Source: an uncultured Rhodobacterales bacterium (GTDB lineage: Bacteria; Pseudomonadota; Alphaproteobacteria; Rhodobacterales; Rhodobacteraceae). Taken from it: a stretch of DNA of 62,603 nucleotides. Location of the stretch: assembly GCA_903873585.1 (NCBI GenBank), contig CAIQOV010000028.1, positions 1 to 62,603 on the forward strand, given 5' to 3'. The position numbers and the translations under genes are program-made. The notes under the pieces are model-generated. The model saw nothing but the letters and a program-made list of their open reading frames with translations, was not told the DNA's origin and did no database searches. Positions 11,706-23,884 of the stretch are shown here, piece after piece. How positions within the stretch are numbered: position 1 is the first letter of the stretch; each line of letters begins with the position of its first letter.

Positions 11706-12695
11706 ATGGACTATCGCCGCTTGGGCAAATCGGGCCTGCAAGTTTCGGAATTTTCCTTTGGGTCTTGGGTGACTTTCGCCAAACAGGTTGATCTGGCCCC
11801 TGCCAAAGAAATTCTGACGGCCGCCTATGACGCAGGTATCAACTTTTTTGACAATGCCGAAGGCTATGAACAGGGCCGATCCGAACTGGTGATGGGCCAA
11901 GTGATTGAAGAACTGGGGTGGAGCCGCGACAGCTATATCGTCTCGTCCAAGGTGTTCTGGGGCGGGGCCAAGCCCACGCAGCGCGGGCTATCGGCCAAGC
12001 ACGTGACCGAAGCCTGCCATGCCGCCCTAAAGCGGCTGCGTGTTGACCATTTGGATCTGTATTTCTGCCACCGCCCCGACATTGACACGCCGATTGAAGA
12101 AACCGTGCGCGCCATGCACAATTTGGTCGTGCAGGGGAAGGTAATTTACTGGGGCACATCGGAATGGTCTGGCCAGCAGATCACCGAGGCCCATGCCGTG
12201 GCCGCGCGCCACAACCTGACCCCGCCAACGATGGAACAGCCGCAATACAACCTGTTCGAACGCCACAAGGTCGAAGCCGACTATGCGCCGATCTATGACA
12301 CCTATGGGCTGGGCACCACGATCTGGTCGCCCTTGGCATCGGGGTTGCTGACCGGCAAATACAACAACGGCATTCCCAATGACGCGCGGGCGAATTTGGC
12401 GGGCTATGAATGGTTGCGCGACAATTTCACCTCTGAAGCCGGACAGGCCAAGATTGAAAAGGCGCGCGCTTTGTCCAAGGTGGCCGAGGGCGCTGGCCTA
12501 AGCCTAACCAACCTGTCGCTGCTGTGGTGCTTGCACAACAAGCGTGTGTCGACCGTGATCTTGGGCGCCTCACGCCTGAGCCAATTGACCGACAATCTGG
12601 CGGCGCTGACCCAAAAGGCCAAGCTGACCGATGATGTTTTGGCGGCGGTTGAGGCGGTTGTTGGCAATAAACCTGCCGCCCCGCAAAAATTCTAA
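11706..12695 (+). CDS. Aldo/keto reductase, Kv-beta/YghZ-like
   Basis: A 329-residue NADPH-dependent oxidoreductase with a TIM barrel. Catalytic residues are visible: Asp and Tyr in NFFDNAEGYEQGRSE, Lys in YIVSSKVFWGG and His in DLYFCHRPDIDTP. The opening MDYRRLGKSGLQVSEFSFGSW and the motif WGTSEWSGQQI place it near the voltage-gated K+ channel beta-subunit-like AKRs, which reduce aldehydes such as methylglyoxal. The start at 11706 has AGGAGAG about 6 nt upstream; the open frame extends to 11589 through the proS terminator and is not coding. It is flanked by terminators on both sides, so it is probably monocistronic. Confidence 0.92.
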   Translation: MDYRRLGKSGLQVSEFSFGSWVTFAKQVDLAPAKEILTAAYDAGINFFDNAEGYEQGRSELVMGQVIEELGWSRDSYIVSSKVFWGGAKPTQRGLSAKHVTEACHAALKRLRVDHLDLYFCHRPDIDTPIEETVRAMHNLVVQGKVIYWGTSEWSGQQITEAHAVAARHNLTPPTMEQPQYNLFERHKVEADYAPIYDTYGLGTTIWSPLASGLLTGKYNNGIPNDARANLAGYEWLRDNFTSEAGQAKIEKARALSKVAEGAGLSLTNLSLLWCLHNKRVSTVILGASRLSQLTDNLAALTQKAKLTDDVLAAVEAVVGNKPAAPQKF

Positions 12696-12702
12696 CGCCG
12701 AA

Positions 12703-12725
12703 CCGGAGGGTTTCACACCCTCCGG
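12703..12725 (+). terminator. Terminator hairpin after the aldo/keto reductase
   Basis: Perfect 8-bp stem CCGGAGGG / CCCTCCGG with a TTTCACA loop, beginning 7 nt after the stop and followed by CCTTT. Confidence 0.7.
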
Positions 12726-12819
12726 CCTTTGCGCAGTCTGTGTGCGAAAAGTGTTGGGGTTGTGCTTGCGTTGGATGGCGGCTTTGGGTCAAACTGCGGG
12801 CAAATCTGGGGAGGCTGGC

Positions 12820-13476
12820 ATGGCGAAACGGGCATTGATCACATGGGGCGGATGGGACGGGCACCAGCCCGACAAAGTGGCCGCTTTGTTCGCCGCCGAT
12901 CTGCGCGCGGCGGGGTTTGAGGTCGACGTCACCGACAGCTTGGCCTGTTTTGATGATGCGGCGGCGCTAAAATTGCTGGACCTGATCGTTCCGGTCTGGA
13001 CGATGAGCACGATTGAAAAAGAACGCAGCCAAGCCGTGGCCGATGCTGTGGAATCAGGCGTGGGACTTGCAGGCTGCCACGGCGGGATGTGCGACGCCTT
13101 TCGCAACGACGTGGTTTGGCAGTTCATGACCGGCGCGCAATGGGTGGCGCATCCGGGCAATGACGGGGTGGAATACCGTGTGCGCATCACCGACCCCAGC
13201 AATCCCTTGGTCGCAGGCATCGGCGATTTCGATGTGAAAACTGAGCAATATTACCTGCACGTTGACCCCGCCGTAAAAGTGCACGCCGTATGCGACTTTC
13301 CGGTGGTCGATGGCCCCCATGCGCCCAATGGCCCTGTTGCCATGCCCGTCGGCTTTACCAAAATGTGGGGCAAGGGGCGGGTTTATTACAACGCTTTGGG
13401 CCATCAGGCCAATGTGATCGACCATGGCCCTGCGCGCGAAATGATCCGGCGCGGGATGGCTTGGGCGGCGCGCTGA
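12820..13476 (+). CDS. ThuA-domain protein
   Basis: A 218-residue protein of the ThuA/trehalose-utilisation family, which has a class I glutamine-amidotransferase-like fold. It begins AKRALITWGGWDGHQPDKV and contains VGLAGCHGGMCDAFRND and DFDVKTEQYYLHVDP, stretches typical of the family. Members have been linked to sugar catabolism, but the reaction is not established. The start at 12820 has GGGGAGG just upstream; the frame is open further back through the preceding terminator, which cannot be coding. Its stop overlaps the ATG of the next small gene (TGATG at 13474-13478), so the two are translationally coupled. Confidence 0.85.
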   Translation: MAKRALITWGGWDGHQPDKVAALFAADLRAAGFEVDVTDSLACFDDAAALKLLDLIVPVWTMSTIEKERSQAVADAVESGVGLAGCHGGMCDAFRNDVVWQFMTGAQWVAHPGNDGVEYRVRITDPSNPLVAGIGDFDVKTEQYYLHVDPAVKVHAVCDFPVVDGPHAPNGPVAMPVGFTKMWGKGRVYYNALGHQANVIDHGPAREMIRRGMAWAAR

Positions 13477-13694
13477 TGAGCTTTCAGGCCTATCTGGACA
13501 ATATCCAAGCGAAAACCGGCAAAACTCCGGCTGATTTCAAAGCTATGGCGGCTGAAAAGGGCTTTGCGGGGCCTGCGGGCATTGCGGATGGTGTGAAAGC
13601 CACGCAAATCACCGACTGGCTTAAGGCCGATTTCGGCCTTGGCCACGGCCATGCCATGGCGATTTTTGCTTTGCTTAAGGGCAAGACCAGCTAG
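13476..13694 (+). CDS. DUF4287 small protein
   Basis: A 72-residue protein, MSFQAYLDNIQAKTGKTPADF onward, with the DUF4287 pattern: an N-terminal helix-rich segment and the ITDWLKADFGLGHGHAMAIF stretch. These proteins are small, cytoplasmic and of unknown function; several are annotated near the SufD-like or DUF5655 group. The start codon overlaps the ThuA stop. The coupling suggests a linked role with the ThuA protein, but nothing shows what it is. Confidence 0.85.
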   Translation: MSFQAYLDNIQAKTGKTPADFKAMAAEKGFAGPAGIADGVKATQITDWLKADFGLGHGHAMAIFALLKGKTS

Positions 13695-13781
13695 CCGCCC
13701 ATAACGGCATCGTGGCTTGACGGTGGGGCGCGCTGGCCGCATGGTCGCCGCGACTTTGGCTTGCTGAGAAAGACCCAAACC

Positions 13782-15062
13782 TTGTCCACCCGCCCCTTTG
13801 CCGCCTTTGAATTCATGATCGCTTGGCGTTATCTGCGCGCAAGGCGGGCCGAGGGTGGCGTGTCTGTGATGACATGGATCAGCCTTGTTGGCATCACGCT
13901 GGCCGTCTTTGCGCTGATCGCCACCTTGGCGGTGCGCGCGGGGTTCAGGGCCGAGTTTGTCGATACGATCTTGGGGGCCAATGCCCATGTCACGGTTTAT
14001 TCCGCAGGCCATGCCGATGAAAAGGGCAACCTGATCAAGGGCTTTGCCGATGATGCGGCCACAGTGGCCGCTTTGCGCGCGATTGAGGGTGTCACCCGTG
14101 CCGCCCCCTTGGTGCGCGGCCAAGTCATGGTTACGGCCTTTGATCAAACCACCGGCGGCGATGTTTATGGCATGACGCCGCAAGACCTTGCCAGCCTGCC
14201 GCGCATCGGGGCGGGCAGTCTGGGGCAGGGCAACTTGGCCGATTACCCGCAAGGCATCGCCATGGGGTCGGAAATGGCGCGCGAATTGGGGGTGACGGTG
14301 GGCGATAAGGTGCGCTTGATTGCGCCCTCAGGCGTCAAATCGGCCTTTGGCACCAGCCCGCGCGTTAAGGCCTATACGGTGGAATACATCTTCACCGCTG
14401 GCCGCTATGACATTGATAAGGTGCGCCTTTACCTGCCCCTGACCGAAGCACAAAGCTTTTTCAACCGCGAGGGGATTGTGGATGAATACGAAGTCATGGT
14501 CAAAAACCCCGACGCCGTTGACACCTATGCCGACGCGCTGATGCAAGCGGGCGGGCCGGATGCCTTGCTGTGGACATGGAAGCAAAGCTCTGGCGCGTTT
14601 CTGCGCGCCTTGTCGGTTGAGGATAACGTTATGTTCATCATCTTGTCGATCTTGGTGCTGATCGCCACGATGAACATCGTATCCGGCCTGATTATGCTGG
14701 TGAAAAACAAGGGCCGCGACATTGGCATTTTGCGCACGATGGGGCTGACCGAAGGGTCAATCTTGCGCGTCTTCTTCCTGTGCGGGTCGTTCACCGGCGT
14801 GATCGGCACGGCGATGGGCGTGGCCCTTGGCTGCCTGTTCGCGCTCTACATCGACCCTATTTTTTCCTTTGTGAACTTCTGGGCCGGTGGCGGCGTGTGG
14901 GACCCTTCGATCAGGGGCATCTACACCCTTCCCGCCAAGCTACAGGCGCAAGATGTGGGGTCTGCCATGGCGCTATCCTTGGGCCTGTCGTTCGTCATCA
15001 CCCTAATCCCCGCGCGCAAAGCCGCCCGCATGAACCCGGTTGAGGCGCTGCGCTATGAATAG
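13782..15062 (+). CDS. lolC: LolC/LolE-type lipoprotein-releasing ABC permease
   Basis: Inner-membrane subunit of the LolCDE complex, which extracts outer-membrane lipoproteins from the inner membrane and passes them to LolA. About 426 residues with one N-terminal membrane helix, a large periplasmic MacB-like domain (roughly 50-270) and three C-terminal helices containing the FtsX signature IGILRTMGLTEGSILRVFF. The start is uncertain: family proteins begin near PFAAFE-MIAWRYLRARR, so I chose the TTG at 13782. TTG 13761 and ATG 13815 are alternatives. A weak promoter candidate (TTGACG, 17 bp, CATGGT) lies at 13717-13745. It overlaps lolD by 8 nt. Alphaproteobacteria often have one hybrid LolC/E permease. 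Confidence 0.9.
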   Translation: MSTRPFAAFEFMIAWRYLRARRAEGGVSVMTWISLVGITLAVFALIATLAVRAGFRAEFVDTILGANAHVTVYSAGHADEKGNLIKGFADDAATVAALRAIEGVTRAAPLVRGQVMVTAFDQTTGGDVYGMTPQDLASLPRIGAGSLGQGNLADYPQGIAMGSEMARELGVTVGDKVRLIAPSGVKSAFGTSPRVKAYTVEYIFTAGRYDIDKVRLYLPLTEAQSFFNREGIVDEYEVMVKNPDAVDTYADALMQAGGPDALLWTWKQSSGAFLRALSVEDNVMFIILSILVLIATMNIVSGLIMLVKNKGRDIGILRTMGLTEGSILRVFFLCGSFTGVIGTAMGVALGCLFALYIDPIFSFVNFWAGGGVWDPSIRGIYTLPAKLQAQDVGSAMALSLGLSFVITLIPARKAARMNPVEALRYE

Positions 15063-15726
15063 CCTCACCCTGCAAGGCATTGAAAAAGCATACAATCGCG
15101 GCAAGGCGGGCGAGGTTGTGGTGCTGCGCGGCGCAAGCCTGACGGTCTCTGCGGGCGAGGTTGTGGCGCTTGTCGCCCCCTCAGGCGCTGGCAAATCCAC
15201 CCTGTTGCAAATCGCGGGTCTGTTGGATGTGGCCGACCAAGGCACGGTGCAATACGGCGCGCGCCAAATGACTGGCCTGAACGACCGCGCCCGCACCGAT
15301 GCGCGCCGCGCCGAGGTGGGGTTTATCTACCAGTTCCACCACCTGCTGCCCGAATTTTCCGCCCTTGAAAACATCACCCTGCCGCAACTGGCCCACGGCA
15401 TCGCCAAACCCGTGGCCGAGGCGCGGGCGCGTGACCTGCTGGCCCGTGTCGGCGTTTTGGCCCGCGAAAGCCACCGCCCTGCGGCCCTGTCGGGCGGCGA
15501 ACAACAGCGCGTCGCCTTTTGCCGCGCCTTGGCCAACAGCCCCAAACTGCTGCTGGCAGATGAGCCTACGGGCAACCTAGACCCCGCCAATGCCGCCCAA
15601 GTCTTTGATGTGCTGATGCAAATCGTGCGCGAAACCGGCCTGTCGGCTTTGATCGCCACCCATAACATGGATTTGGCCGCGCGGATGGACCGCGTGGTAC
15701 GGTTGCAAGACGGGCAGATCGTCTGA
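15055..15726 (+). CDS. lolD: LolD lipoprotein-releasing ABC ATPase
   Basis: ATP-binding subunit that powers LolC/E, 223 residues. Walker A is [11 protein letters not shown], the Q-loop is in VGFIYQFHHLL, the signature is LSGGEQQRVAFCRAL, Walker B is KLLLADEPTGNLD and the switch His is in LIATHNMD. The ATG at 15055 lies inside the lolC end (CTATGAATAG), so the two are coupled. The longer open frame to 15040 would begin inside lolC without a ribosome-binding site. Confidence 0.94.
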   Translation: MNSLTLQGIEKAYNRGKAGEVVVLRGASLTVSAGEVVALVAPSGAGKSTLLQIAGLLDVADQGTVQYGARQMTGLNDRARTDARRAEVGFIYQFHHLLPEFSALENITLPQLAHGIAKPVAEARARDLLARVGVLARESHRPAALSGGEQQRVAFCRALANSPKLLLADEPTGNLDPANAAQVFDVLMQIVRETGLSALIATHNMDLAARMDRVVRLQDGQIV

Positions 15727-15808
15727 CCCGCCGAAAGTTTTGCCGCACGACAGGTTTTCAACCCCTCATCACAGGTGTAGTCTGGCGCAAAATGACAAAG
15801 GATGTCCC

Positions 15809-16213
15809 ATGCGCGCCCCCCACCTGCTGCCCGCCCTGCTGATTTTGGCCGCCTGCGTGCCGGGCCAAGCGCCCACGCCGCCTAGTTCGGGCAAAGCCGA
15901 TTTCACCGAACTTTGCGCGCCCTGCCATGGGGTAAGTGCCAAGGGCGACGGCGCGTTGGGAAAAAGCCTCGCCCACCGCCCCGCCGACCTGACGGGCCTG
16001 TCCTCGCGGCATGGCGGGGTGTTCCCGATGGCCTATGTGATGTCAAAAATCTGGGGCTATAGCCACGGAGAGGCCCCCTCGGCCCTGATGCCCAAATTCG
16101 CCCCCTTGATGGAGGGGCCGACGGTGCTGGTGGATACCGGCGACGGGATCATGACGCCCACGCCGCAACGGTTGGTAGAGATTGCGGCGTATTTGGAGAC
16201 GGTGCAGGAGTAG
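15809..16213 (+). CDS. Lipoprotein c-type cytochrome
   Basis: A 134-residue protein with an N-terminal lipoprotein signal (LLPALLILAAC, lipobox LAAC) and one haem-binding CAPCH motif near residue 37. Met residues in SALMPKF or FPMAY are candidates for the sixth ligand. It is predicted to be an envelope-anchored monohaem electron carrier. The start at 15809 has AAAGGA about 7 nt upstream; the frame is open back to 15740 without coding character. It stands alone between lolD and the AT-rich TIR cassette, so its redox partner is unknown. Confidence 0.88.
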   Translation: MRAPHLLPALLILAACVPGQAPTPPSSGKADFTELCAPCHGVSAKGDGALGKSLAHRPADLTGLSSRHGGVFPMAYVMSKIWGYSHGEAPSALMPKFAPLMEGPTVLVDTGDGIMTPTPQRLVEIAAYLETVQE

Positions 16214-16246
16214 GGGGCGCGAATTACATACGCACCCTCATAATTC

Positions 16247-16645
16247 TTACGTGTTCTCTGCGGAAAGAAAGACCTCTGACGTTCTTTTCAATAGATCATC
16301 AATCAATTGTAACTGGTCTCGATCTCCATTCCTGCATATGAAGCGAAACATCTTGATGATTTTGATGCTTATATCAATCATTTCACCTGAAGCTTCTAAT
16401 TCAGCTAGATTTACCATCTTGTCAATTTCAAGTGTAAACTCATGAATAAGCCTTGAAGGTATTCGAGTGTTGGTGGGATAATCGGTCTGGGTTCGAAATC
16501 TGCTTTGTCTCATTCCGTCGAGGATTTCTTCCAGAATTTCACGATCAGATCGTTTTGCCGGCCTCGGCCCCGCTTTTTCACTCAAAATTTTCGATATTTC
16601 AACTTCCAAGTCTGGCCACCATTTTTCAAATACTTGGTCAACCAT
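16247..16645 (-). CDS. C-terminal fragment of the TIR-family protein (132 aa)
   Basis: The ORF starts at an ATG at 16645 and encodes a hydrophilic, helical protein: FEKWWPDLEVEISKILSEK, then AKRSDREILEEILDGMRQ and a C-terminal helical tail. I find no enzymatic motif. It is in frame with, and 18 nt beyond, the stop codon of the TIR ORF. The FEKWWPDLE segment is what I remember directly following the TIR domain in full-length relatives, so this is best read as the detached C-terminal part. There is no convincing ribosome-binding site before the ATG (only AAGAT-like sequence), so independent translation is doubtful. Codon use (ATA, AGA, TTA) differs from that of neighbours. Confidence 0.55.
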   Translation of the reverse strand: MVDQVFEKWWPDLEVEISKILSEKAGPRPAKRSDREILEEILDGMRQSRFRTQTDYPTNTRIPSRLIHEFTLEIDKMVNLAELEASGEMIDISIKIIKMFRFICRNGDRDQLQLIDDLLKRTSEVFLSAENT

Positions 16646-16663
16646 ATTATCTTGAAGTGCATC

Positions 16664-17062
16664 TTAATTATTAGTTTTGTTTATTGTTTTAATAAGTTTT
16701 CTAAAATCATCCTTATTAAATCTCGTAGTGTTAAAATTCGCAAGTGGCGCGTTTAATTCTGCTGGTTCCAGTCCGAATAAAACCGTGCAAACATTTGATC
16801 CTGCAAGCTGCTTCGATAACGCTCCAGCTTCAAATAAGATCCAAGGCTTGTTCAAATTGTCTCCAGTTAAGCAGATTATACCAATATCGCACTCGGAAAG
16901 TTTTTTGCTTAATTCAGAAACCCACTTTGTTCCTTTATCTATGTCATCCGGCGAATAGAACGGCCGAACAAACTGTAGAACTGAAGGTAGCCAGTCACTT
17001 AAAGCTTTCCCTATTTTTTGACTTTTTTCGCCGCTCCAACTTATAAAAACTCCTCTAGTCAT
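16664..17062 (-). CDS. TIR-domain protein, N-terminal fragment (132 aa)
   Basis: Begins MTRGVFISWSGEKSQKIGKAL, a TIR-type first strand and helix. It continues with DIDKGTKWVSELSKKL, CDIGIICLTGDNL and PWILFEAGALSK. Glu78 in the last segment is in the position of the catalytic glutamate of NAD-cleaving TIR domains. Bacterial TIR proteins commonly act in antiphage defence by depleting NAD or making signal nucleotides; that role is inferred here. The ATG at 17062 has a perfect GGAGG 6 nt upstream and lies 15 nt behind the parE stop on the same strand, so it may be co-transcribed with parE. It ends at a TAA that appears premature. Confidence 0.8.
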   Translation of the reverse strand: MTRGVFISWSGEKSQKIGKALSDWLPSVLQFVRPFYSPDDIDKGTKWVSELSKKLSECDIGIICLTGDNLNKPWILFEAGALSKQLAGSNVCTVLFGLEPAELNAPLANFNTTRFNKDDFRKLIKTINKTNN

Positions 17063-17077
17063 TTAAAACCTCCAAAA

Positions 17078-19030
17078 TTAAACATCCAACTCCTCAACAA
17101 ACCTCGCGTTTTCTTGGATATACTGAAACCGCAATTCCGGCTTCTTACCCATCAAGCGCTCAACCAAGTCGCCCGTCTCGCCGGGGTCTTCCTCAACTAT
17201 AGTTACGCGGATCAACGTTCGTGTCAACGGATTCATCGTTGTGTCTTTCAGGTCTTTGGCATCCATCTCGCCCAAGCCCTTGAACCGCTGCACATCAATT
17301 TTTCCGCGCCCGCCCAAGCCCTTGGCCAGCATCAGCTCCTTTTCGGCATCATCCGCCACATAGATCCGCTTGGCCCCTTGGGTCAGCCGATACAGCGGCG
17401 GGCAGGCCAGATATAGGTGGCCCTTGTCGATCAGCGGGCGCATTTGGGCAAAGAAAAACGTCATCAGCAGGCTGGCGATATGCGCCCCGTCAACATCGGC
17501 GTCGGTCATGATGATGATTTTATCATAGCGCAGATCGTCGACATTAAACTTGGCCCCCATCGTCACGCCAAGCGCTTCGCAAATATCGCGAATTTCGGAA
17601 TTGTCGTGCAATTTCGCCGAAGCAGCCCCCAGCACGTTCAAAATCTTGCCCTTTAGCGGCAGCAACGCCTGCGTTTCACGGTTGCGCGCCGCCTTGGCCG
17701 ACCCGCCCGCGCTATCGCCTTCGACGATGAACAGTTCCGTTCCTTCGCGGTTCTTGGCGGAACAATCGGTCAATTTTCCCGGCAAACGCAGCTTTTTGGT
17801 CGCCGTCTTGCGCGCCGTTTCCTTTTCTTGCCGCCGCTTTAACCGCTCTTCTGCCCGCAGGATCAGGAAATCTAAAATTGCCCCCGCATATTTCGTATTG
17901 CCCGCCAGCCAATTGTCAAAATGGTCACGCACCGCGCCTTCGACATATTTAACCGCCTCTTCCGTGGCCAAGCGGTCTTTGGTCTGCCCCACAAACTGCG
18001 GCTCGCGGATAAAGCATGACACAAGGGCGCAGCCCCCCGCTGTCAGATCATCGCGGGTGATCAATTCTGTCTTGCGGTTCTTGGTCAACTCGCCGTAAGC
18101 GCGAATGCCTTTAAGCACCGCGTTCCAAAACCCCGTCTCATGCGTGCCACCTTCGGGCGTGGGCACGGTGTTGCAATAGGATTGAATGAACCCGTCGCGT
18201 GCAGGTGTCCAATTGATCGCCCATTCTACAGACCCCGGCACACCAAACTTGGCCTGAAACCCCACCTTTCCGGCAAAGGGTTTGTCGGCATAGGTCGTGG
18301 TTTTTTCCAAAGTGTCGGCCAAGTAATCGGCCAAGCCACCGGGAAAGTGAAACACCGCTTCCATCGGCGTGTCGCCATCGGGGATCGCGGTTTTCCAACG
18401 GATTTCGACGCCCGAAAACAGGTAGGCCTTCGATCGCACCATGCGCATCAATCGGCCCGCGCGAAATTGCTGGCTGCCGAAGATCTGCGCATCGGGGTGA
18501 AAGGTCACCCAAGTGCCCCGCCTGTTGGCCACGGGGCCAACTTTGCGAATGGGGGCCAAGGGTTTGCCGCGCGAAAAGCTTTGGGTGTACAGCTCTTTGT
18601 TCAGCGCCACTTCCACATCCATCCGGTCAGACAGCGCGTTGACCACCGAAGACCCCACGCCGTGCAACCCGCCCGAGGTTTCATAAGCCTTGCCGCCGAA
18701 TTTACCGCCCGAGTGCAGGGTGCACAAAATCACCTCAAGCGCTGATTTGTCGGGAAACTTGGGATGCGGGTCGACAGGTATCCCCCGCCCATTGTCGCGC
18801 ACCGTCAAAGCGCCGTCTGCGTGCAGTTCAACTTCGATGCGCGTGGCATGGCCTGCCACAGCCTCATCCATCGCGTTGTCGACGATTTCGGCGGCAAGGT
18901 GGTGATAGGCGCGCTCGTCAATCCCGCCGATGTACATGCCCGGCCGCAGGCGCACCGCCTCTAGCGGTTCCAGCACCTCGATCGACGAGGCGTTGTAGGT
19001 ATCGGTCGTGTTGCTCAGCAAATCTGACAT
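17078..19030 (-). CDS. parE: DNA topoisomerase IV subunit B
   Basis: ATPase subunit of topoisomerase IV, which decatenates daughter chromosomes together with ParC. A 650-residue protein with a GHKL ATPase domain (EIVDNAMDEAVAGHA, VRDNGRGIPVD, GGLHGVGSSVVNAL), a transducer domain, and a TOPRIM domain with ELFIVEGDSAGGSAK and the acidic TDADVDGAHI motif. The length fits ParE rather than the ~800-residue GyrB. Its start at 19030 is followed by MSDLLSNTTDTYNASSIEVLEPLEAVRLRPGMYIG-like sequence typical of alphaproteobacterial ParE. The TIR cassette follows its stop directly. Confidence 0.96.
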   Translation of the reverse strand: MSDLLSNTTDTYNASSIEVLEPLEAVRLRPGMYIGGIDERAYHHLAAEIVDNAMDEAVAGHATRIEVELHADGALTVRDNGRGIPVDPHPKFPDKSALEVILCTLHSGGKFGGKAYETSGGLHGVGSSVVNALSDRMDVEVALNKELYTQSFSRGKPLAPIRKVGPVANRRGTWVTFHPDAQIFGSQQFRAGRLMRMVRSKAYLFSGVEIRWKTAIPDGDTPMEAVFHFPGGLADYLADTLEKTTTYADKPFAGKVGFQAKFGVPGSVEWAINWTPARDGFIQSYCNTVPTPEGGTHETGFWNAVLKGIRAYGELTKNRKTELITRDDLTAGGCALVSCFIREPQFVGQTKDRLATEEAVKYVEGAVRDHFDNWLAGNTKYAGAILDFLILRAEERLKRRQEKETARKTATKKLRLPGKLTDCSAKNREGTELFIVEGDSAGGSAKAARNRETQALLPLKGKILNVLGAASAKLHDNSEIRDICEALGVTMGAKFNVDDLRYDKIIIMTDADVDGAHIASLLMTFFFAQMRPLIDKGHLYLACPPLYRLTQGAKRIYVADDAEKELMLAKGLGGRGKIDVQRFKGLGEMDAKDLKDTTMNPLTRTLIRVTIVEEDPGETGDLVERLMGKKPELRFQYIQENARFVEELDV

Positions 19031-19141
19031 GGGGCGCCTGTTCTTGTTTGGTGCCCATTAGACACCGCCAAGGGGGCAGGGCGCAAGGGCTGGCCTTGGG
19101 CTAAAGCTTCAGGCATGGTTGCGCCAAAGCAGGAGGATTTG

Positions 19142-20032
19142 ATGCGCATACTTTTCACAGGCGGCTCGGGCAAAGCGGGCAAACATGTGGTGGCCTATTT
19201 GGCGGCACAGGGGCACAGGGTACTCAATGTCGATAAAGTGCCGCTGCGCCACCCCGGCGTGGCTGATTTGGTCGCCGATATCACCGACAGCGGGCAGATG
19301 TTCAACGCCATGACCGCCTATGCCAGCGGCGATGATCTGGAAGACGGTCTTGGCCAGCGCAAGTTTGACGCCGTGGTGCATTTCGCCGCCATTCCTGCGC
19401 TGATGATTGCGCCTGACAATGAAACCTACCGCGTCAATGTGATGGGCACGTATAACGTGCTGGAAGCGGCGCTGAAATCGGGCATCCGCAAGGTGATTAT
19501 CGCCTCGTCGGAAACCACTTACGGGGTGTGTTTCAGCGACGGTCAAACCGACCCCGCCTATCTGCCGCTGGATGAAGCCTACCCGATCAACCCGATGGAC
19601 AGCTACGGCATGTCCAAAAAGGTAAACGAGGTGACAGCCGAAGCGTTCCAGCGCCGCACGGGGGCTGATGTCTACGCGCTGCGCATCGGCAACGTGATGG
19701 AGCCGCAAGACTACGCCCGCTTCCCCGATTTTGCCAAAGACCCCGGCTCCCGCCGCCGCATCACGTTTAGCTACATTGATGCGCGCGATCTGGGGCAGAT
19801 TGTCGATCTGGCACTAAAGAAAGACGGGCTGGGCTATCAGGTGTTCAACGCGGTCAACGACACCAATTCCGTACCGCAACCCAACGCCGACCTTTTGGCG
19901 CAGTTCTTTGCGAACGTTCCCCTGACCCGCGCGGTCGAACCCAACGAAAGCCTATTGTCCAACCAAAAAATCCGTGAGGTTTTGGGCTTCAAAGAACAGC
20001 ACAACTGGCGCAACCACGTCCCCGCACGCTAA
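19142..20032 (+). CDS. NAD-dependent epimerase/dehydratase (extended SDR)
   Basis: A 296-residue extended short-chain dehydrogenase. The Rossmann motif is RILFTGGSGKAGKHV at the N-terminus; the active site has HFAAIPA, a Ser/Thr in VIIASSETTYG, and YGMSKK (YxxxK). Relatives act on sugar nucleotides or similar substrates, but no sugar pathway surrounds it, so the substrate is open. The start at 19142 has AGGAGGATTTG immediately upstream. The frame is open back to 19115 but adds nothing conserved. It is divergent from parE (111-nt gap) and ends at a repeat cluster. Confidence 0.88.
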   Translation: MRILFTGGSGKAGKHVVAYLAAQGHRVLNVDKVPLRHPGVADLVADITDSGQMFNAMTAYASGDDLEDGLGQRKFDAVVHFAAIPALMIAPDNETYRVNVMGTYNVLEAALKSGIRKVIIASSETTYGVCFSDGQTDPAYLPLDEAYPINPMDSYGMSKKVNEVTAEAFQRRTGADVYALRIGNVMEPQDYARFPDFAKDPGSRRRITFSYIDARDLGQIVDLALKKDGLGYQVFNAVNDTNSVPQPNADLLAQFFANVPLTRAVEPNESLLSNQKIREVLGFKEQHNWRNHVPAR

Positions 20033-20053
20033 TTGCCCCCCCCGCACCCCCCA

Positions 20054-20142
20054 TTTCATACTTGCTTAAATATCCCACGGGGGTGCGGGGGTGTGAAACC
20101 CCCGCTTTTTGACAGGGGGTGCGGGGGTGTGAAACCCCCGCT
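20054..20142 (-). repeat. C/G-rich 3'-end repeat, copy 2 (inverted, plus an adjacent partial copy)
   Basis: A complete copy in minus orientation spans 20054-20106 (TTTCATACTTGC, AAATATCCCACGGGGGTG and a hairpin ending GAAACCCCCGCT). A second copy of only the hairpin half follows at 20115-20142. It lies between the convergent epimerase and ridA genes and probably serves as a bidirectional terminator. Confidence 0.75.
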
Positions 20143-20156
20143 CTGGCTGTGCCGCT

Positions 20157-20510
20157 TTACTTCAAAGCGGCCGTAACGATCACTTCCACCAAGTAATCCG
20201 GCGTGGCCAGCTTGGCTTCACCCGTCGCACGGGCAGGGGTGTGGCCTGCGGGAACCCAAGTGTCCCAAACCGCGTTCATTTGGCCGAATGTCGAGATATC
20301 GGCCAACCAGATTTGGGTTGACAGAATGCGCGTCTTATCGGTGCCAGCTTGCGCCAAAATGCGGTCCACCTCGGCCAAACAGGTGCGGGTCTGGTCCGCA
20401 ACCGTGTCGCCCGGATTGCCAACTTGGCCTGCCACCCAAACGATGCCGTTGTAGCACACGGCCTCTGACATACGCGCGCCGGTGCCGATGCGTTTGATAT
20501 CTGTGTTCAT
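20157..20510 (-). CDS. RidA family protein
   Basis: A 117-residue RidA/YjgF/YER057c-type protein. Members hydrolyse reactive enamine or imine intermediates or act as related deaminases. Typical segments are AVCYNGIVWVAGQVG, QTRTCLAEVDRILAQAG and KLATPDYLVEVIVTAAL. The residue matching the catalytic Arg of RidA proper is not obvious (the C-terminal region reads ARATGEAKLATPDYL, where the Arg sits in ARATGEA), so it may belong to a Rid subgroup. The start at 20510 has GAGGGAG upstream; the long open frame back to 20768 overlaps merR and is a shadow. It is 73 nt downstream of merR on the same strand. Confidence 0.88.
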   Translation of the reverse strand: MNTDIKRIGTGARMSEAVCYNGIVWVAGQVGNPGDTVADQTRTCLAEVDRILAQAGTDKTRILSTQIWLADISTFGQMNAVWDTWVPAGHTPARATGEAKLATPDYLVEVIVTAALK

Positions 20511-20583
20511 GATAAACTCCCTCTGATGCGCTTTGCTACCCTGCTGGGCGGGGTTTGAAAAGCCGCTGTGAACCGCCAAAACC

Positions 20584-20979
20584 CTATTCGTAGTAAAGCC
20601 CGATCTCTTTAAGATGGGCATCCACGACCTCTTTGTCGGGCTGGTCAGCAAAGAACAAAAGCTGCTTTTTAACATCTTCCAAATCGGCGATCTGGGTATC
20701 GACCTGCTGGGCTTGGGCCAAAAGAAAAGCGCGGCGCTCTTCGCGGCTGATTTGGTCATTGATGGCACGGTTCAAAACCGCCCCGATGTCGCGCAGGGAA
20801 AAGTGCATCCGCTTGCCCAAGGCAATCAGCGCCAAGCGTTCCAGCGTGGTGTCATCGTAATCGCGGTAAATGCGGGTGCCCGCCTTAACCGGTTTAGAGT
20901 GGATCAGCCCAAGGTCTTCATAATAGCGCAGCCCGTCTTTCGACAGGCCCGTGATCTTCACCAATTCCCCAATCAGCAT
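20584..20979 (-). CDS. MerR family transcriptional regulator
   Basis: A 131-residue regulator with the MerR winged helix at the N-terminus (LIGELVKITGLSKDGLRYYEDLGLI), a dimerisation coiled coil (REERRAFLLAQAQQVDTQIADLEDVKKQL), and a short C-terminus without the Cys cluster of metal sensors. The effector is unknown. It precedes ridA on the same strand, so it probably regulates both genes. A 17-bp inverted repeat about 90 bp upstream (21069-21085) is a candidate operator. Confidence 0.9.
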   Translation of the reverse strand: MLIGELVKITGLSKDGLRYYEDLGLIHSKPVKAGTRIYRDYDDTTLERLALIALGKRMHFSLRDIGAVLNRAINDQISREERRAFLLAQAQQVDTQIADLEDVKKQLLFFADQPDKEVVDAHLKEIGLYYE

Positions 20980-21068
20980 GGCTTCCCCCCTTTGGTGCCC
21001 GTTTATTAGGCTTGGGCGAAACCCTAGACGAAGGGTCTTGGCTTATGGAAGTCATGAAACGCTAAAAC

Positions 21069-21085
21069 TGTAGGGTTACCCTACA
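21069..21085. promoter_or_regulatory. Candidate MerR-type operator
   Basis: Perfect 8-bp inverted repeat TGTAGGGT-T-ACCCTACA upstream of the merR-ridA pair. A second weaker pair of half-sites, ACCCT/AGGGT with a 6-bp gap, lies nearer to merR at about 21021-21036. High symmetry and position suggest autoregulation. Confidence 0.5.
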
Positions 21086-21174
21086 ATTTTCCCCCCAAAG
21101 CCGTGCGGCGCAAAAAATCGCTGAATTTGAACGCTGTAAAAAGCGCTCAAGGCAAGGCAGCGATGTAAAGGGGA

Positions 21175-21248
21175 TGGAGCGGGTGAGGGGAATCGAACCC
21201 CCGTATTCAGCTTGGGAAGCTGCTGCTCTGCCATTGAGCTACACCCGC
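21175..21248 (-). tRNA. tRNA-Gly (anticodon CCC)
   Basis: A 74-nt cloverleaf on the minus strand. The acceptor GCGGGTG pairs with CACCCGC, the D stem is GCTC/GAGC, the anticodon loop TTCCCAA gives CCC, and the T-arm is GGGGGTTCGATTCCCC. The CCA end is encoded (after discriminator T). Confidence 0.95.
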
Positions 21249-21258
21249 AGTGCGCGCA

Positions 21259-21287
21259 CAGGTAATCGCTTGCAACGCTTGCGTCAA
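21259..21287 (-). promoter_or_regulatory. Promoter of tRNA-Gly
   Basis: On the minus strand TTGACG is followed by 17 bp and TACCTG, ending 10 bp before the tRNA 5' end. The -10 is weak, but position and spacing fit. The same TTGACG element precedes tRNA-Leu at 37300. Confidence 0.5.
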
Positions 21288-21832
21288 GCCGCGAAGAACT
21301 GCGCGGCGGTGCTTTGGGCTTGGGGGTCTTTTTGCCAATCGCCTGGTGCGTTGGCATCGGCCAGCAACGCGCCGCCCCAGCACATTCCCAGATAGGCCGT
21401 AGCAAGGCGCAACCCGTCACGGGCGGGGGCAATCTCGGCGTCTGAGGATCCGGCGTGGGCCATGATCAGCCATGCGCGTTTGCCCGACATACGGGCTTTG
21501 AAATCTAAGTCCGGCAGGCGCATCCAATGCGACCAGTGGTCTAGGTACAGTTTCGCAGGGGCGGGCAGGCCGTACCAGTACAAAGGGGCGACAAACACGA
21601 TGTCGCTGGCTTGCAGCGTGCGTTCGGCCAGTGCTGCCATCTGTGGCGACAGCGGCCCATAGCGGGCCCCATGGCGCAGGTCTTCAAAGGCGGGCAGTTT
21701 GGCTTTTGTCAGGTCGCACCAGTCTTGCGCAACGCTATCCGCCAAGCCTGCGGCTGCCGCGCGGGCCATGCTTTGCGTGTTGCCATCGCTGCGCGCACTT
21801 GACAGCAAGAATAAAAAGCGCCGGTTGGTCAT
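21284..21832 (-). CDS. Flavodoxin-like NAD(P)H-dependent FMN reductase
   Basis: A 182-residue protein with the flavodoxin-like fold. It begins RRFLFLLSSARSDGNTQSMA, the FMN phosphate-binding loop, and has the substrate/FMN loop VFVAPLYWYGLPAPAKLYLDHW, as in NADPH-dependent FMN reductases and quinone reductases. It is probably cytoplasmic. It ends 35 nt before the tRNA-Gly gene and begins 9 nt after the end of the DUF4445 gene on the same strand, so it may be the distal gene of that unit. The physiological substrate is unknown. Confidence 0.85.
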   Translation of the reverse strand: MTNRRFLFLLSSARSDGNTQSMARAAAAGLADSVAQDWCDLTKAKLPAFEDLRHGARYGPLSPQMAALAERTLQASDIVFVAPLYWYGLPAPAKLYLDHWSHWMRLPDLDFKARMSGKRAWLIMAHAGSSDAEIAPARDGLRLATAYLGMCWGGALLADANAPGDWQKDPQAQSTAAQFFAA

Positions 21833-21841
21833 GGTCTGGCC

Positions 21842-23884
21842 CTACCCGCGCCGCCGCTTGCGCCCGCCCTCACCACCCGAACCGGCGGTGTTAAAGCTGA
21901 CATCGGGCAGCGGGTCTAGATGCGGAAAGGCATCGACCGCGTTGGGAATGGCCGAGGCATTGACGAAATGCTCTTGAAAGCGCGGTTCGATGGCGGTTTC
22001 GACCTTGTGGATGTCATGCACCACGGCCTCGATCGTGTCGCGCGCCGCGCGGTTGCACAAAGCGATCCGCGCGCCGGTGCCAGCGGCATTGCCAGCCGAG
22101 ATCACTTTATCAAGCGCGGCATCGGGGATCATGCCCAAGATCATCGCGTGTTTGGGCGAGATATGCGCCCCGAACGCCCCTGCCAGAACCACACGGTCCA
22201 CCGTTTCCACGCCCATTTCATCCATCAACAGCTTGGCACCCGCATAAAGGGCGGCCTTCGCCAGTTGAATGGCGCGGATATCGCCTTGCGTCACCAAAAT
22301 GCGCGGCCCGCCTTCGGCTGTGCCATCATGCAGCACATAAGAATGGGTGCGCCCTTCTGGAACTGACCGCGCCGTGCCGGTTTGATCCGGCCCGCCGATC
22401 AGCCCGCCTTGATCGACCAGCCCTGCACTGCGCAGTTCAGCCACGGCTTCGATGATGCCTGACCCGCAAATGCCCGTCACACCACTGGCCCCGATGGCCG
22501 CAGCAAAGCCGTCATCGGTTGACCACAGATCAGACCCGATCACCTTAAAGCGCGGCTCTTTGGTGACGGGGTCAATCTCGACCCGTTCAATTGCGCCCGG
22601 CGCTGCGCGTTGGCCCGAAGAAATCTGCGCGCCTTCAAAGGCGGGCCCTGTGGGCGACGAACAGGCCAGAACCCGTGTTTTGTTTCCTAACAACAGTTCG
22701 GCATTGGTGCCGACATCAACAATCAGCACCATATCGTCTGACTTGTTCGGCTCTTCGGCCAAGGCCACAGCGGCGCAATCGGCCCCCACATGGCCTGCGA
22801 TACACGGCAGCACATAGACCCGCGCGGTGCGCGCCACGGCGGTCAGGTCCAACTCGCGCGCGTCGAACGACAATGATCCAGAGGTTGCCAGCGCAAAGGG
22901 CGCTTGGCCCAGTTCCACCGGATCTATCCCCAGCAAAAGATGGTGCATCACGGGGTTGCACACAAAGACCAGTTCGTAAATGGCCGTCGCATCCACCTTG
23001 GCCTCTGCCGCAATCTCGCTCACCAGCGTGTTGATTGACGCGCGCACAGCGGCGGTCATTTCGACATCGCCGCCGGGGTTCATCATGGCGTAGGACACGC
23101 GGCTCATCAAATCTTCGCCAAAGCGGATTTGCGGGTTCATCACACCGGCTGACGCCAAAACCTTGCCATCGGTCAAGTCGCACAGATGGGCTGCGATGGT
23201 GGTTGACCCAAGGTCAATCGCAAGGCCCAACAACGGGCCTTCGTGATAGCCGGGCCACAGGTCTAGCAGGTGATAATCGGCGTCGTGGTTGCCCTTGTTC
23301 AGGGCGACCGTGATCTTCCATTCGCCCTTGCGCAAGGCAGGTTGCAAGCGGCGCAGCAGGGTCAGTTCAGCCTGAACGCCTTCTATCTGCCACTGCTCGG
23401 CCAAAGCGCGCTTGACGCGTTCGAAATCGCCCGTGGGTTCGTGCATATCGGGCTCTGCCACGTCGATGAAATACAGCCGAGTGGCCGGATCCATCGCAAT
23501 CACGCGGTCAGAGGCGGATTTGCGGATGACCTGCTTGTGCACTTGGCTTTCGGGCGGCACATCCACGATCACATCGCCCATCACCTTGGCCTGACAGCCC
23601 AAGCGCCGCCCGTCGATCAGCCCACGCACGCGCTTATAGCGCGCCTCAACCTCGTTCCATTCCGAAAGGGCATCAGCGGCCACCGTCACGCCGTGCTTGG
23701 GAAACTCGCCATACCCCGGCTGGATTTGGCATTTGGAACAAATCCCCCGCCCGCCGCAGACTGAATCCAGATCGACCCCCAACTGCCGCGCTGCCGTTAA
23801 AATCGGCGTGCCAAGCGCAAAGCGCCCGCGTTTGCCCGAAGGGGTGAAGATCACAAGCGCGTCTTGGGTGGCGGCATCGGTCAT
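21842..23884 (-). CDS. DUF4445 / ASKHA ferredoxin-fusion protein (RACo-like corrinoid-protein activator family)
   Basis: A 680-residue protein. Residues ~8-95 are a 2Fe-2S ferredoxin domain with cysteines in VCGGRGICSKC and a fourth in RLGCQAK. The rest is an ASKHA-type ATPase fold with GLAIDLGSTTIAAHL and VLIVDVGTNAELLLG as phosphate-binding loops. The family includes RACo/RamA, which reductively reactivate corrinoid methyltransferase proteins using ATP. No corrinoid protein or methyltransferase gene is in this window. The start at 23884 has AGGAG 7 nt upstream; the frame is open to 24022 but that reaches the kbl promoter region. Arg/Lys-rich C-terminus. Confidence 0.88.
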   Translation of the reverse strand: MTDAATQDALVIFTPSGKRGRFALGTPILTAARQLGVDLDSVCGGRGICSKCQIQPGYGEFPKHGVTVAADALSEWNEVEARYKRVRGLIDGRRLGCQAKVMGDVIVDVPPESQVHKQVIRKSASDRVIAMDPATRLYFIDVAEPDMHEPTGDFERVKRALAEQWQIEGVQAELTLLRRLQPALRKGEWKITVALNKGNHDADYHLLDLWPGYHEGPLLGLAIDLGSTTIAAHLCDLTDGKVLASAGVMNPQIRFGEDLMSRVSYAMMNPGGDVEMTAAVRASINTLVSEIAAEAKVDATAIYELVFVCNPVMHHLLLGIDPVELGQAPFALATSGSLSFDARELDLTAVARTARVYVLPCIAGHVGADCAAVALAEEPNKSDDMVLIVDVGTNAELLLGNKTRVLACSSPTGPAFEGAQISSGQRAAPGAIERVEIDPVTKEPRFKVIGSDLWSTDDGFAAAIGASGVTGICGSGIIEAVAELRSAGLVDQGGLIGGPDQTGTARSVPEGRTHSYVLHDGTAEGGPRILVTQGDIRAIQLAKAALYAGAKLLMDEMGVETVDRVVLAGAFGAHISPKHAMILGMIPDAALDKVISAGNAAGTGARIALCNRAARDTIEAVVHDIHKVETAIEPRFQEHFVNASAIPNAVDAFPHLDPLPDVSFNTAGSGGEGGRKRRRG

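What the first reader, a model, noticed from the sequence alone, without database searches (positions are those of the whole stretch)
16247..17062. TIR-domain gene cut in two by one in-frame TAA
Seen: the TIR ORF (stop TAA at 16664-16666) and the next ORF (ATG 16645) are in the same frame with only six codons between them. Reading through gives a 271-codon protein with TIR domain and a FEKWWPDLE...RSDREILEEIL C-terminal region. From memory, single-chain TIR proteins have just this order. So it is either a recently inactivated defence gene, a stop read through under some condition, or a genuine two-protein system. There is no good ribosome-binding site before the second ATG. Glu78 of the TIR domain (WILFEAGAL) is intact.
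Basis: partly seen in the sequence, partly recalled or inferred. Interest (0 to 1): 0.8.

Follow-up and report, generated by a model that had tools for sequence, protein, structure and literature searches.

The report
Broken TIR gene in exchange site
A probable phage-defence gene of the TIR type has been cut by one stop codon and is most likely dead; it sits just behind the housekeeping gene parE, at a spot where related bacteria carry many different single, foreign-looking genes, several of which look like defence genes.

Summary
Relatives encode both halves as one chain: 17 of 17 homologues translated (of 21 homologous loci in hand) are single ORFs, and one PADLOC profile matches both pieces in order. 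The stop falls in a loop before a helix holding a near-invariant Trp. The first start has a strong ribosome site, the second none. Best reading: a nonsense-inactivated single-chain TIR defence gene, not a two-protein system. A homologue in phage AC1 belongs to a tested anti-phage locus (PMC9122126, passages).

The gene fills the gap between parE and a convergent cytochrome c gene. In this bacterial family the stretch behind parE is a hotspot of single AT-rich genes: 38 of 73 sites, 35 of 70 without the three chosen for their TIR; gyrB 0 of 28, proS 0 of 30. The 51 cargo proteins form 41 unrelated clusters. Four species of at least three genera carry this TIR type there; one other copy is broken too. 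Cargo includes Abi, HEPN, type IV restriction and GmrSD-like genes, but most is unknown.

The parts
16664..17062 (-). TIR-domain ORF (132 aa plus stop)
   Evidence: Pfam TIR_2 E 7.2e-9 (36.6 bits, cut-off 28); PADLOC TIR-TM E 1.4e-55, profile 3-129 of 293
16664..16666 (-). in-frame TAA stop that cuts the chain
   Evidence: falls at the column of residue 132 of the intact Loktanella relative, a loop in its model
16646..16663 (-). six in-frame codons between stop and next ATG
16247..16645 (-). second ORF, C-terminal part of the same chain (132 aa plus stop)
   Evidence: PADLOC TIR-TM E 2.4e-6, profile 139-214 of 293; no Pfam match
17069..17073 (-). GGAGG ribosome site of the TIR ORF, inside the 15-nt gap after parE
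16214..17077 (.). AT-rich insert between the stop codons of two convergent core genes (38.8% GC against 59.3% for the window); occupant of the parE hotspot
17078..19030 (-). parE (topoisomerase IV subunit B), conserved flank
   Evidence: DNA_gyraseB, Toprim, HATPase_c (the ParE rather than GyrB assignment rests on a second, 42%-identical gene elsewhere in the genome, and is an inference); in 96 of 100 family genomes
15740..16213 (+). small cytochrome c-like gene, convergent flank
   Evidence: Cytochrom_C E 2.2e-4; a homologue lies somewhere in the fetched downstream DNA in 32 of 92 parE stretches

Best explanation
This is a nonsense-broken copy of a single-gene TIR defence protein. In its intact relatives one chain carries an N-terminal TIR domain with the WxxxE glutamate, followed at once by a conserved helix and then a variable helical region that I infer to be the sensing part. 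Infection would trigger the TIR part to consume NAD+ or make a signal (inferred from TIR enzymes and from the tested AC1 phage locus; not shown here). In the window the stop ends translation before the conserved helix, and the second ORF has no ribosome site, so most likely neither piece works. The gene starts 15 nt behind parE and is probably transcribed with it, if at all (inferred). It is the present occupant of an exchange site: the gap between parE and a convergent cytochrome gene, where related species hold different single AT-rich genes, probably swapped by homologous recombination in the conserved flanks (inferred). Loss by mutation fits a locus with fast turnover.
For: Single chain in relatives: 17 of 17 translated homologues (4 of the 21 loci in hand were left out: L003 and L007 broken, L008 and L020 weak partial hits). 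Both pieces match one profile in order with 9 profile positions between, and the number of residues between the halves is the same as in the Loktanella relative. Stop in a loop ahead of a helix modelled at pLDDT 86-88 that holds near-invariant W148. No ribosome site at the second ATG. Another parE-linked copy (G085) has a stop where relatives have a conserved Trp, plus a frame shift, and G061 is split against its congener G466, so broken copies of this gene exist elsewhere. Fold: the model of the relative matches TIR domains of SPARTA, TIR-STING, SpbK and others. Homologue in phage P2_AC1 (48.8% over the TIR part), whose three-gene locus protects E. coli C (PMC9122126, passages). Hotspot.
Against: The C-terminal part shows no further lesion and its frame is still open, so the break is recent or the part is still selected; one genome cannot tell which. 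A TAA 18 nt before an ATG could allow re-initiation without a ribosome site. A base error in the assembly cannot be excluded without reads. Two of the three broken copies (window, G061) leave a nearly complete TIR ORF, which would be expected if truncation were tolerated or useful, though three cases prove nothing. The C part is weakly conserved: tblastn with it finds only 5 of 9 other loci tested. The model behind the loop argument has a mean pLDDT of 67 and rests on 7 rows. NADase activity of the window gene is untested here.
Confidence: 0.82

Rival explanations
1. A working two-protein (split) TIR system: the TIR piece and the C piece are made separately, the second by re-initiation after the TAA, and assemble.
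For: Both frames are open and undamaged; the second ATG is 18 nt past the stop, in re-initiation range (the range is general knowledge); the break lies in a loop.
Against: 17 of 17 translated homologues are one ORF; the only other copy in two ORFs, G061, looks like a frame shift; no ribosome site; the stop removes a helix modelled with good confidence next to the TIR unit.
Confidence: 0.07
2. The stop is an assembly or sequencing error and the gene is intact.
For: A single stop is the only lesion seen; the assembly is a 55-contig draft.
Against: The rest of the chain and the neighbouring parE, ABC transporter and cytochrome genes are open; substitution errors in drafts are rare (general knowledge, not tested).
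Confidence: 0.06
3. The TAA is read through under some condition, giving a little full-length protein as a leaky switch.
For: The frame continues.
Against: TAA is generally the least leaky stop (general knowledge); none of the 12 homologues aligned has a stop at this place.
Confidence: 0.03
4. The truncated TIR alone is selected as a product (for instance a decoy or inhibitor of other TIR proteins), and the C part is debris.
For: Strong ribosome site and intact TIR ORF; G061 also leaves a TIR-sized ORF of 131 codons.
Against: Only three broken copies are known here, and in G085 the TIR part itself is cut; no second gene matching this TIR was found in the 95%-complete genome.
Confidence: 0.04

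Closest known systems
PADLOC TIR-TM family (PDLC03016)
   Same: Both window pieces match it, in order; TIR part E 1.4e-55.
   Different: In the window the chain is cut by a stop. A simple hydropathy scan finds no membrane helix in the window pieces or in any of the 17 homologues, despite the name of the profile.
TIR protein of P2-like phage AC1 (Rousset et al. 2022, PMC9122126; passages seen)
   Same: Same TIR subfamily (48.8% over the TIR part); one chain of 315 aa; sits in a hotspot.
   Different: AC1 has associated membrane-protein genes and was tested as three genes; the window gene stands alone between core genes and is cut.
SpbK, and TIR effectors of CBASS, Thoeris and SPARTA
   Same: TIR fold (fold level only) and the WxxxE glutamate (its role is recalled).
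   Different: No partner gene at this locus; the Thoeris model scores far below cut-off (16.2 against 220 bits).
Replacement-type defence hotspots of E. coli and Vibrio (named in PMC10250203, passages seen) and hotspots recombining through core flanks (PMC5635113, abstract and one section seen)
   Same: Fixed core flanks, unrelated short cargo, many without a mobility gene.
   Different: Here the cargo is an AT-rich stretch of 0.5-1.3 kb (37 sites) with one called AT-rich ORF at 34 of 38 sites and two at 4, behind parE, across dozens of genera of one family. The listings showed no report of this site.

Membership tests
single-chain TIR defence protein (PADLOC TIR-TM) | TIR domain | tested here: met
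   fold of the intact relative
single-chain TIR defence protein (PADLOC TIR-TM) | catalytic Glu in WxxxE | tested here: met
   Glu78 aligned with a near-invariant column; activity not testable
single-chain TIR defence protein (PADLOC TIR-TM) | TIR and C-terminal part in one open chain | tested here: not met
   TAA at 16666-16664; it descends from such a protein but is not one as it stands
single-chain TIR defence protein (PADLOC TIR-TM) | transmembrane helix (as the profile name suggests) | tested here: not met
   also absent in the 17 homologues, so the name, not the gene, may be at fault
Thoeris | ThsB-like TIR with a ThsA-like effector beside it | tested here: not met
   ThcB4 far below cut-off, ThsB E 0.011; neighbours are parE and a cytochrome gene
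CBASS with TIR effector | CD-NTase in the same operon | tested here: not met
   neighbours at the locus are core genes; the rest of the genome was not searched for a CD-NTase
replacement-type defence hotspot | constant core flank with unrelated cargo | tested here: met
replacement-type defence hotspot | cargo is mostly defence | tested here: inconclusive
   10 of 40 non-TIR cargo proteins scanned one by one match PADLOC at E 0.001 or better, several clearly (AbiTii, type IV REase, NsnA/GmrSD, PDC-S31); but of 52 control genes further out, families such as mad3 also match, in up to 8 members each, so the raw rate does not discriminate
replacement-type defence hotspot | exchange by recombination in core flanks | not tested
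   sharp edges at both stop codons fit it; no recombination test was run

The most novel reading that the evidence does not exclude
The stretch behind parE is a family-wide single-gene exchange site of Rhodobacteraceae, where defence cassettes of about 1 kb are swapped by recombination in core flanks and delivered by gene transfer agents, whose DNA loads (about 4 kb, recalled) would fit such a cassette with homology on both sides. The broken TIR would be one card in this shared and quickly decaying deck. The site itself is shown; GTA delivery is conjecture, resting only on cassette size and on a GTA marker in 12 of 16 genomes of the genus, the window's own included.
Probability: 0.25. Interest if true: 0.75.

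Novelty: new member of a known kind. Interest (0 to 1): 0.45.

Why it matters
The broken gene alone is ordinary: defence genes come and go. What matters is the address. A fixed spot behind one housekeeping gene that holds a small foreign-looking gene at about half of the sampled sites, rarely the same one, is an easy place to look for new single-gene defences (30 of 40 cargo proteins scanned match no PADLOC model at E 0.001), and a simple system in which gain, loss and decay of such genes can be followed at one place.

Tried and rejected
Two-protein system, read-through and assembly error: see rivals. Integration at a tRNA: the nearest of the two tRNAs of the window is 4 kb away (21175-21248; Rfam over 12000-22000 adds nothing), and no direct repeat frames the insert (15900-17400). 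A promoter or terminator of its own: pattern counts near shuffle level (3 against 1.8 +- 1.3; 1 against 1.3 +- 1.5). Hotspot as a property of parE in Alphaproteobacteria: 1 of 25 usable sites outside the family, from the 27 best-scoring such loci. Hotspot as a property of core-gene ends: rejected against gyrB and proS. Idea that the 188-aa cargo family is often broken at parE: rejected; the stop flagged in G065 is its natural end, and G288 holds only a partial match near a contig end. Adjacent same-frame open stretches as a nonsense signal: useless in GC-rich DNA. PADLOC rate as proof of defence cargo: not discriminating. Viral contigs: no relative of the Loktanella form confirmed; relatives of the AC1 form at 4 loci. 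E. coli genomes: no DNA match for 462 bases. Solved structures by sequence: weak hits only. Papers: nine searches; I saw capped listings with titles and abstract beginnings, none on this site; (parE, defense island, hotspot) held 0 papers; the one 'pare' match in PMC10250203 is an author name.

Rows dropped or chosen: of 96 ParE hits 79 were fetched; 6 near contig ends and 11 others, mostly the lowest-scoring, were left out. With G312, Loktanella and 11 congeners this gave 92 stretches, 73 long enough for the GC count; 3 of these 73 (window, G312, Loktanella) were there because of their TIR, and all 3 count as hits. Of 51 cargo ORFs, 44 passed a GC rule and 7 were added by hand; 8 were not put in alignment A1 (4 TIR; 4 short or doubtful, of which L123 later proved related to the G014 cargo); 3 short ones (L145, L028, L104) were not scanned one by one.

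Full report
WHAT IS THERE. On the minus strand, 15 nt after the stop of parE, an ATG (17062) with a strong ribosome site (GGAGG, 17069-17073) opens a 132-aa ORF ending in TAA at 16666-16664. Six codons on, in the same frame, an ATG opens a second 132-aa ORF ending at 16247. The interval between the stop of parE (17078) and that of the convergent cytochrome c-like gene (16213) has 38.8% GC in a window of 59.3% and holds its most AT-rich 800 nt.

ONE CHAIN OR TWO. The first piece is a TIR domain (Pfam TIR_2, E 7.2e-9; PADLOC TIR-TM, E 1.4e-55). The second matches nothing in Pfam or NCBIfam but matches the same PADLOC profile further on (139-214, E 2.4e-6). Of 21 homologous loci in hand, 17 were translated and all 17 are single ORFs of 261-345 aa (the mEp390 one is annotated at 272 aa). 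They come from relatives of the window's family, a Bacteroidia MAG, plasmids and phages. The four left out are two broken copies (G085, G061) and two weak partial hits (G271, G413). By profile, 10 of 390 genomes of the order and 4 of 367 of the class match, the window's own included in both. In these two samples only the window's match carries an internal stop, and G061 is split in two ORFs; its congener G466, 95% identical over 3.4 kb, is intact. G085, with a stop inside, came from the TIR search.

WHERE THE STOP FALLS. In a model of the intact Loktanella relative (mean pLDDT 67; ten-residue blocks of the first 160 residues 58-88) the stop column is residue 132, in the loop between helices 116-129 and 137-161. 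The second helix is modelled at 86-88 and carries the near-invariant W148, so the cut product lacks what looks like part of the TIR unit. The C-terminal helices are modelled poorly (blocks of 30-55). Foldseek finds TIR domains of SPARTA, plant receptors, TIR-STING and SpbK, with a few flavodoxin-like and other folds among them (TM-scores by query length 0.22-0.41, so fold level only). The WxxxE glutamate is present.

EXPRESSION. The second ATG has no ribosome site. Re-initiation cannot be excluded. The post-stop frame is open in 2 of 5000 shuffles, so it was a coding frame until recently, or still is. Together: most likely a gene inactivated recently.

WHAT THE INTACT FORM DOES. The TIR of P2-like phage AC1 is a homologue (48.8% over the TIR part). 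Passages of PMC9122126 report that an AC1 lysogen, and the three cloned genes of its hotspot, protect E. coli C against lambda and LF82_P8, and that the system also protects against P2. There the TIR is accompanied by membrane-protein genes; here it stands alone, as in phage mEp390. NAD+ consumption or signalling is inferred from the family.

THE SITE. Searching relatives showed the same TIR type directly behind parE in four species of at least three genera: the window, G312, G085 and Loktanella sp. SALINAS62 (TIR parts 56-77% identical, ParE 80-85%; whether Loktanella is one of the unnamed genera is not known). None of the 15 other genomes of the genus has the TIR, and 7 others of 394 in the family do, one by a weak hit. 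The 13 sites of the genus compared (window included) all differ right after the parE stop, and in the 8 where the cytochrome gene was found, similarity resumes at its stop. ParE was then located in 96 of 100 family genomes, 95 of 99 genera; 79 of the 96 were fetched, giving 92 stretches with the genus, G312 and Loktanella. In 38 of 73 stretches long enough, the first 600 nt lie more than 10 GC points below the DNA further on; without the three sites chosen for their TIR it is 35 of 70. Among the 30 best-scoring loci per gene the numbers are 14 of 29 for parE (13 of 28 without the window), 0 of 28 for gyrB and 0 of 30 for proS (Fisher p 1.4e-8 and 4e-8; genomes are related, so this is a guide only). 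Outside the family it is 1 of 25. The AT-rich stretch is 500-1300 nt long, median 900 (37 sites), with one called AT-rich ORF at 34 of 38 sites and two at 4. The 51 first genes fall into 41 clusters, 35 of them single; 34 of 51 point the same way as parE. Beside the TIR, an unknown 188-aa family recurs: 9 of 295 genomes have it, five of these at parE, one by a partial match, besides the query genome.

CARGO. Pfam on 43 non-TIR cargo proteins finds 20 families, one member each except DUF2971 with two: Mrr_cat and MrcB_N, AbiTii, HEPN_AbiU2, RiboL-PSP HEPN, GmrSD with HNH, DUF4238, DUF3800, an exonuclease and others. PADLOC matches 10 of 40 scanned one by one. A control of 52 genes further out also gives PADLOC matches, to 11 families, five of them with eight members each and the best at E 3.9e-28 (mad3); some are described as AAA ATPases, and I suspect the LolD-like transporter genes, but the call does not show which members match. 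So the raw rate does not prove defence; the kinds of families suggest it. That the family is Rhodobacteraceae is inferred from the named Loktanella and Tritonibacter relatives.

HOW THE SITE MAY WORK. There is no tRNA within 4 kb and no framing repeat, and none of the six neighbouring genes scanned is an integrase; the other window genes were not scanned. Sharp edges at the two stop codons fit recombination through core flanks, as argued in general in PMC5635113 (abstract and one section seen). A GTA marker (PF13547) is present in 12 of 16 genomes of the genus; delivery by GTA is a conjecture.

VERDICT. A nonsense-broken single-chain TIR gene in a single-gene exchange site. The gene is ordinary; the site is the more interesting part. 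The listings of the searches made showed no report of it; they cover open-licence papers only and are capped.

Noticed in passing
window 16214-17077 and parE 3' flanks in L089-L168: Family-wide hotspot of single AT-rich genes directly behind parE, not seen behind gyrB and proS in 58 control loci and at 1 of 25 sites outside the family.
   Followed up: yes
L023:2737-3300, L122:3416-3979, L137:320-883, L149:311-808, L238:510-1055: An unknown 188-aa family, with a small companion ORF in the first four of these loci, recurs at parE; no Pfam match for L023 and L122, no PADLOC match for the first four.
   Followed up: partly
L003:1501-2300: A second parE-linked TIR copy (G085), broken by a stop at a conserved Trp position and by a frame shift.
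   Followed up: partly
L021 (G061) against L015 (G466): A TIR copy split near the domain junction against a 95%-identical congener whose ORF is intact.
   Followed up: partly
L053:2495-3313 and L054:3995-4810: TIR homologues placed alone, reversed, between antitermination gene Q and lysis genes of lambdoid phages or prophages, a likely cargo site for defence genes.
   Followed up: no
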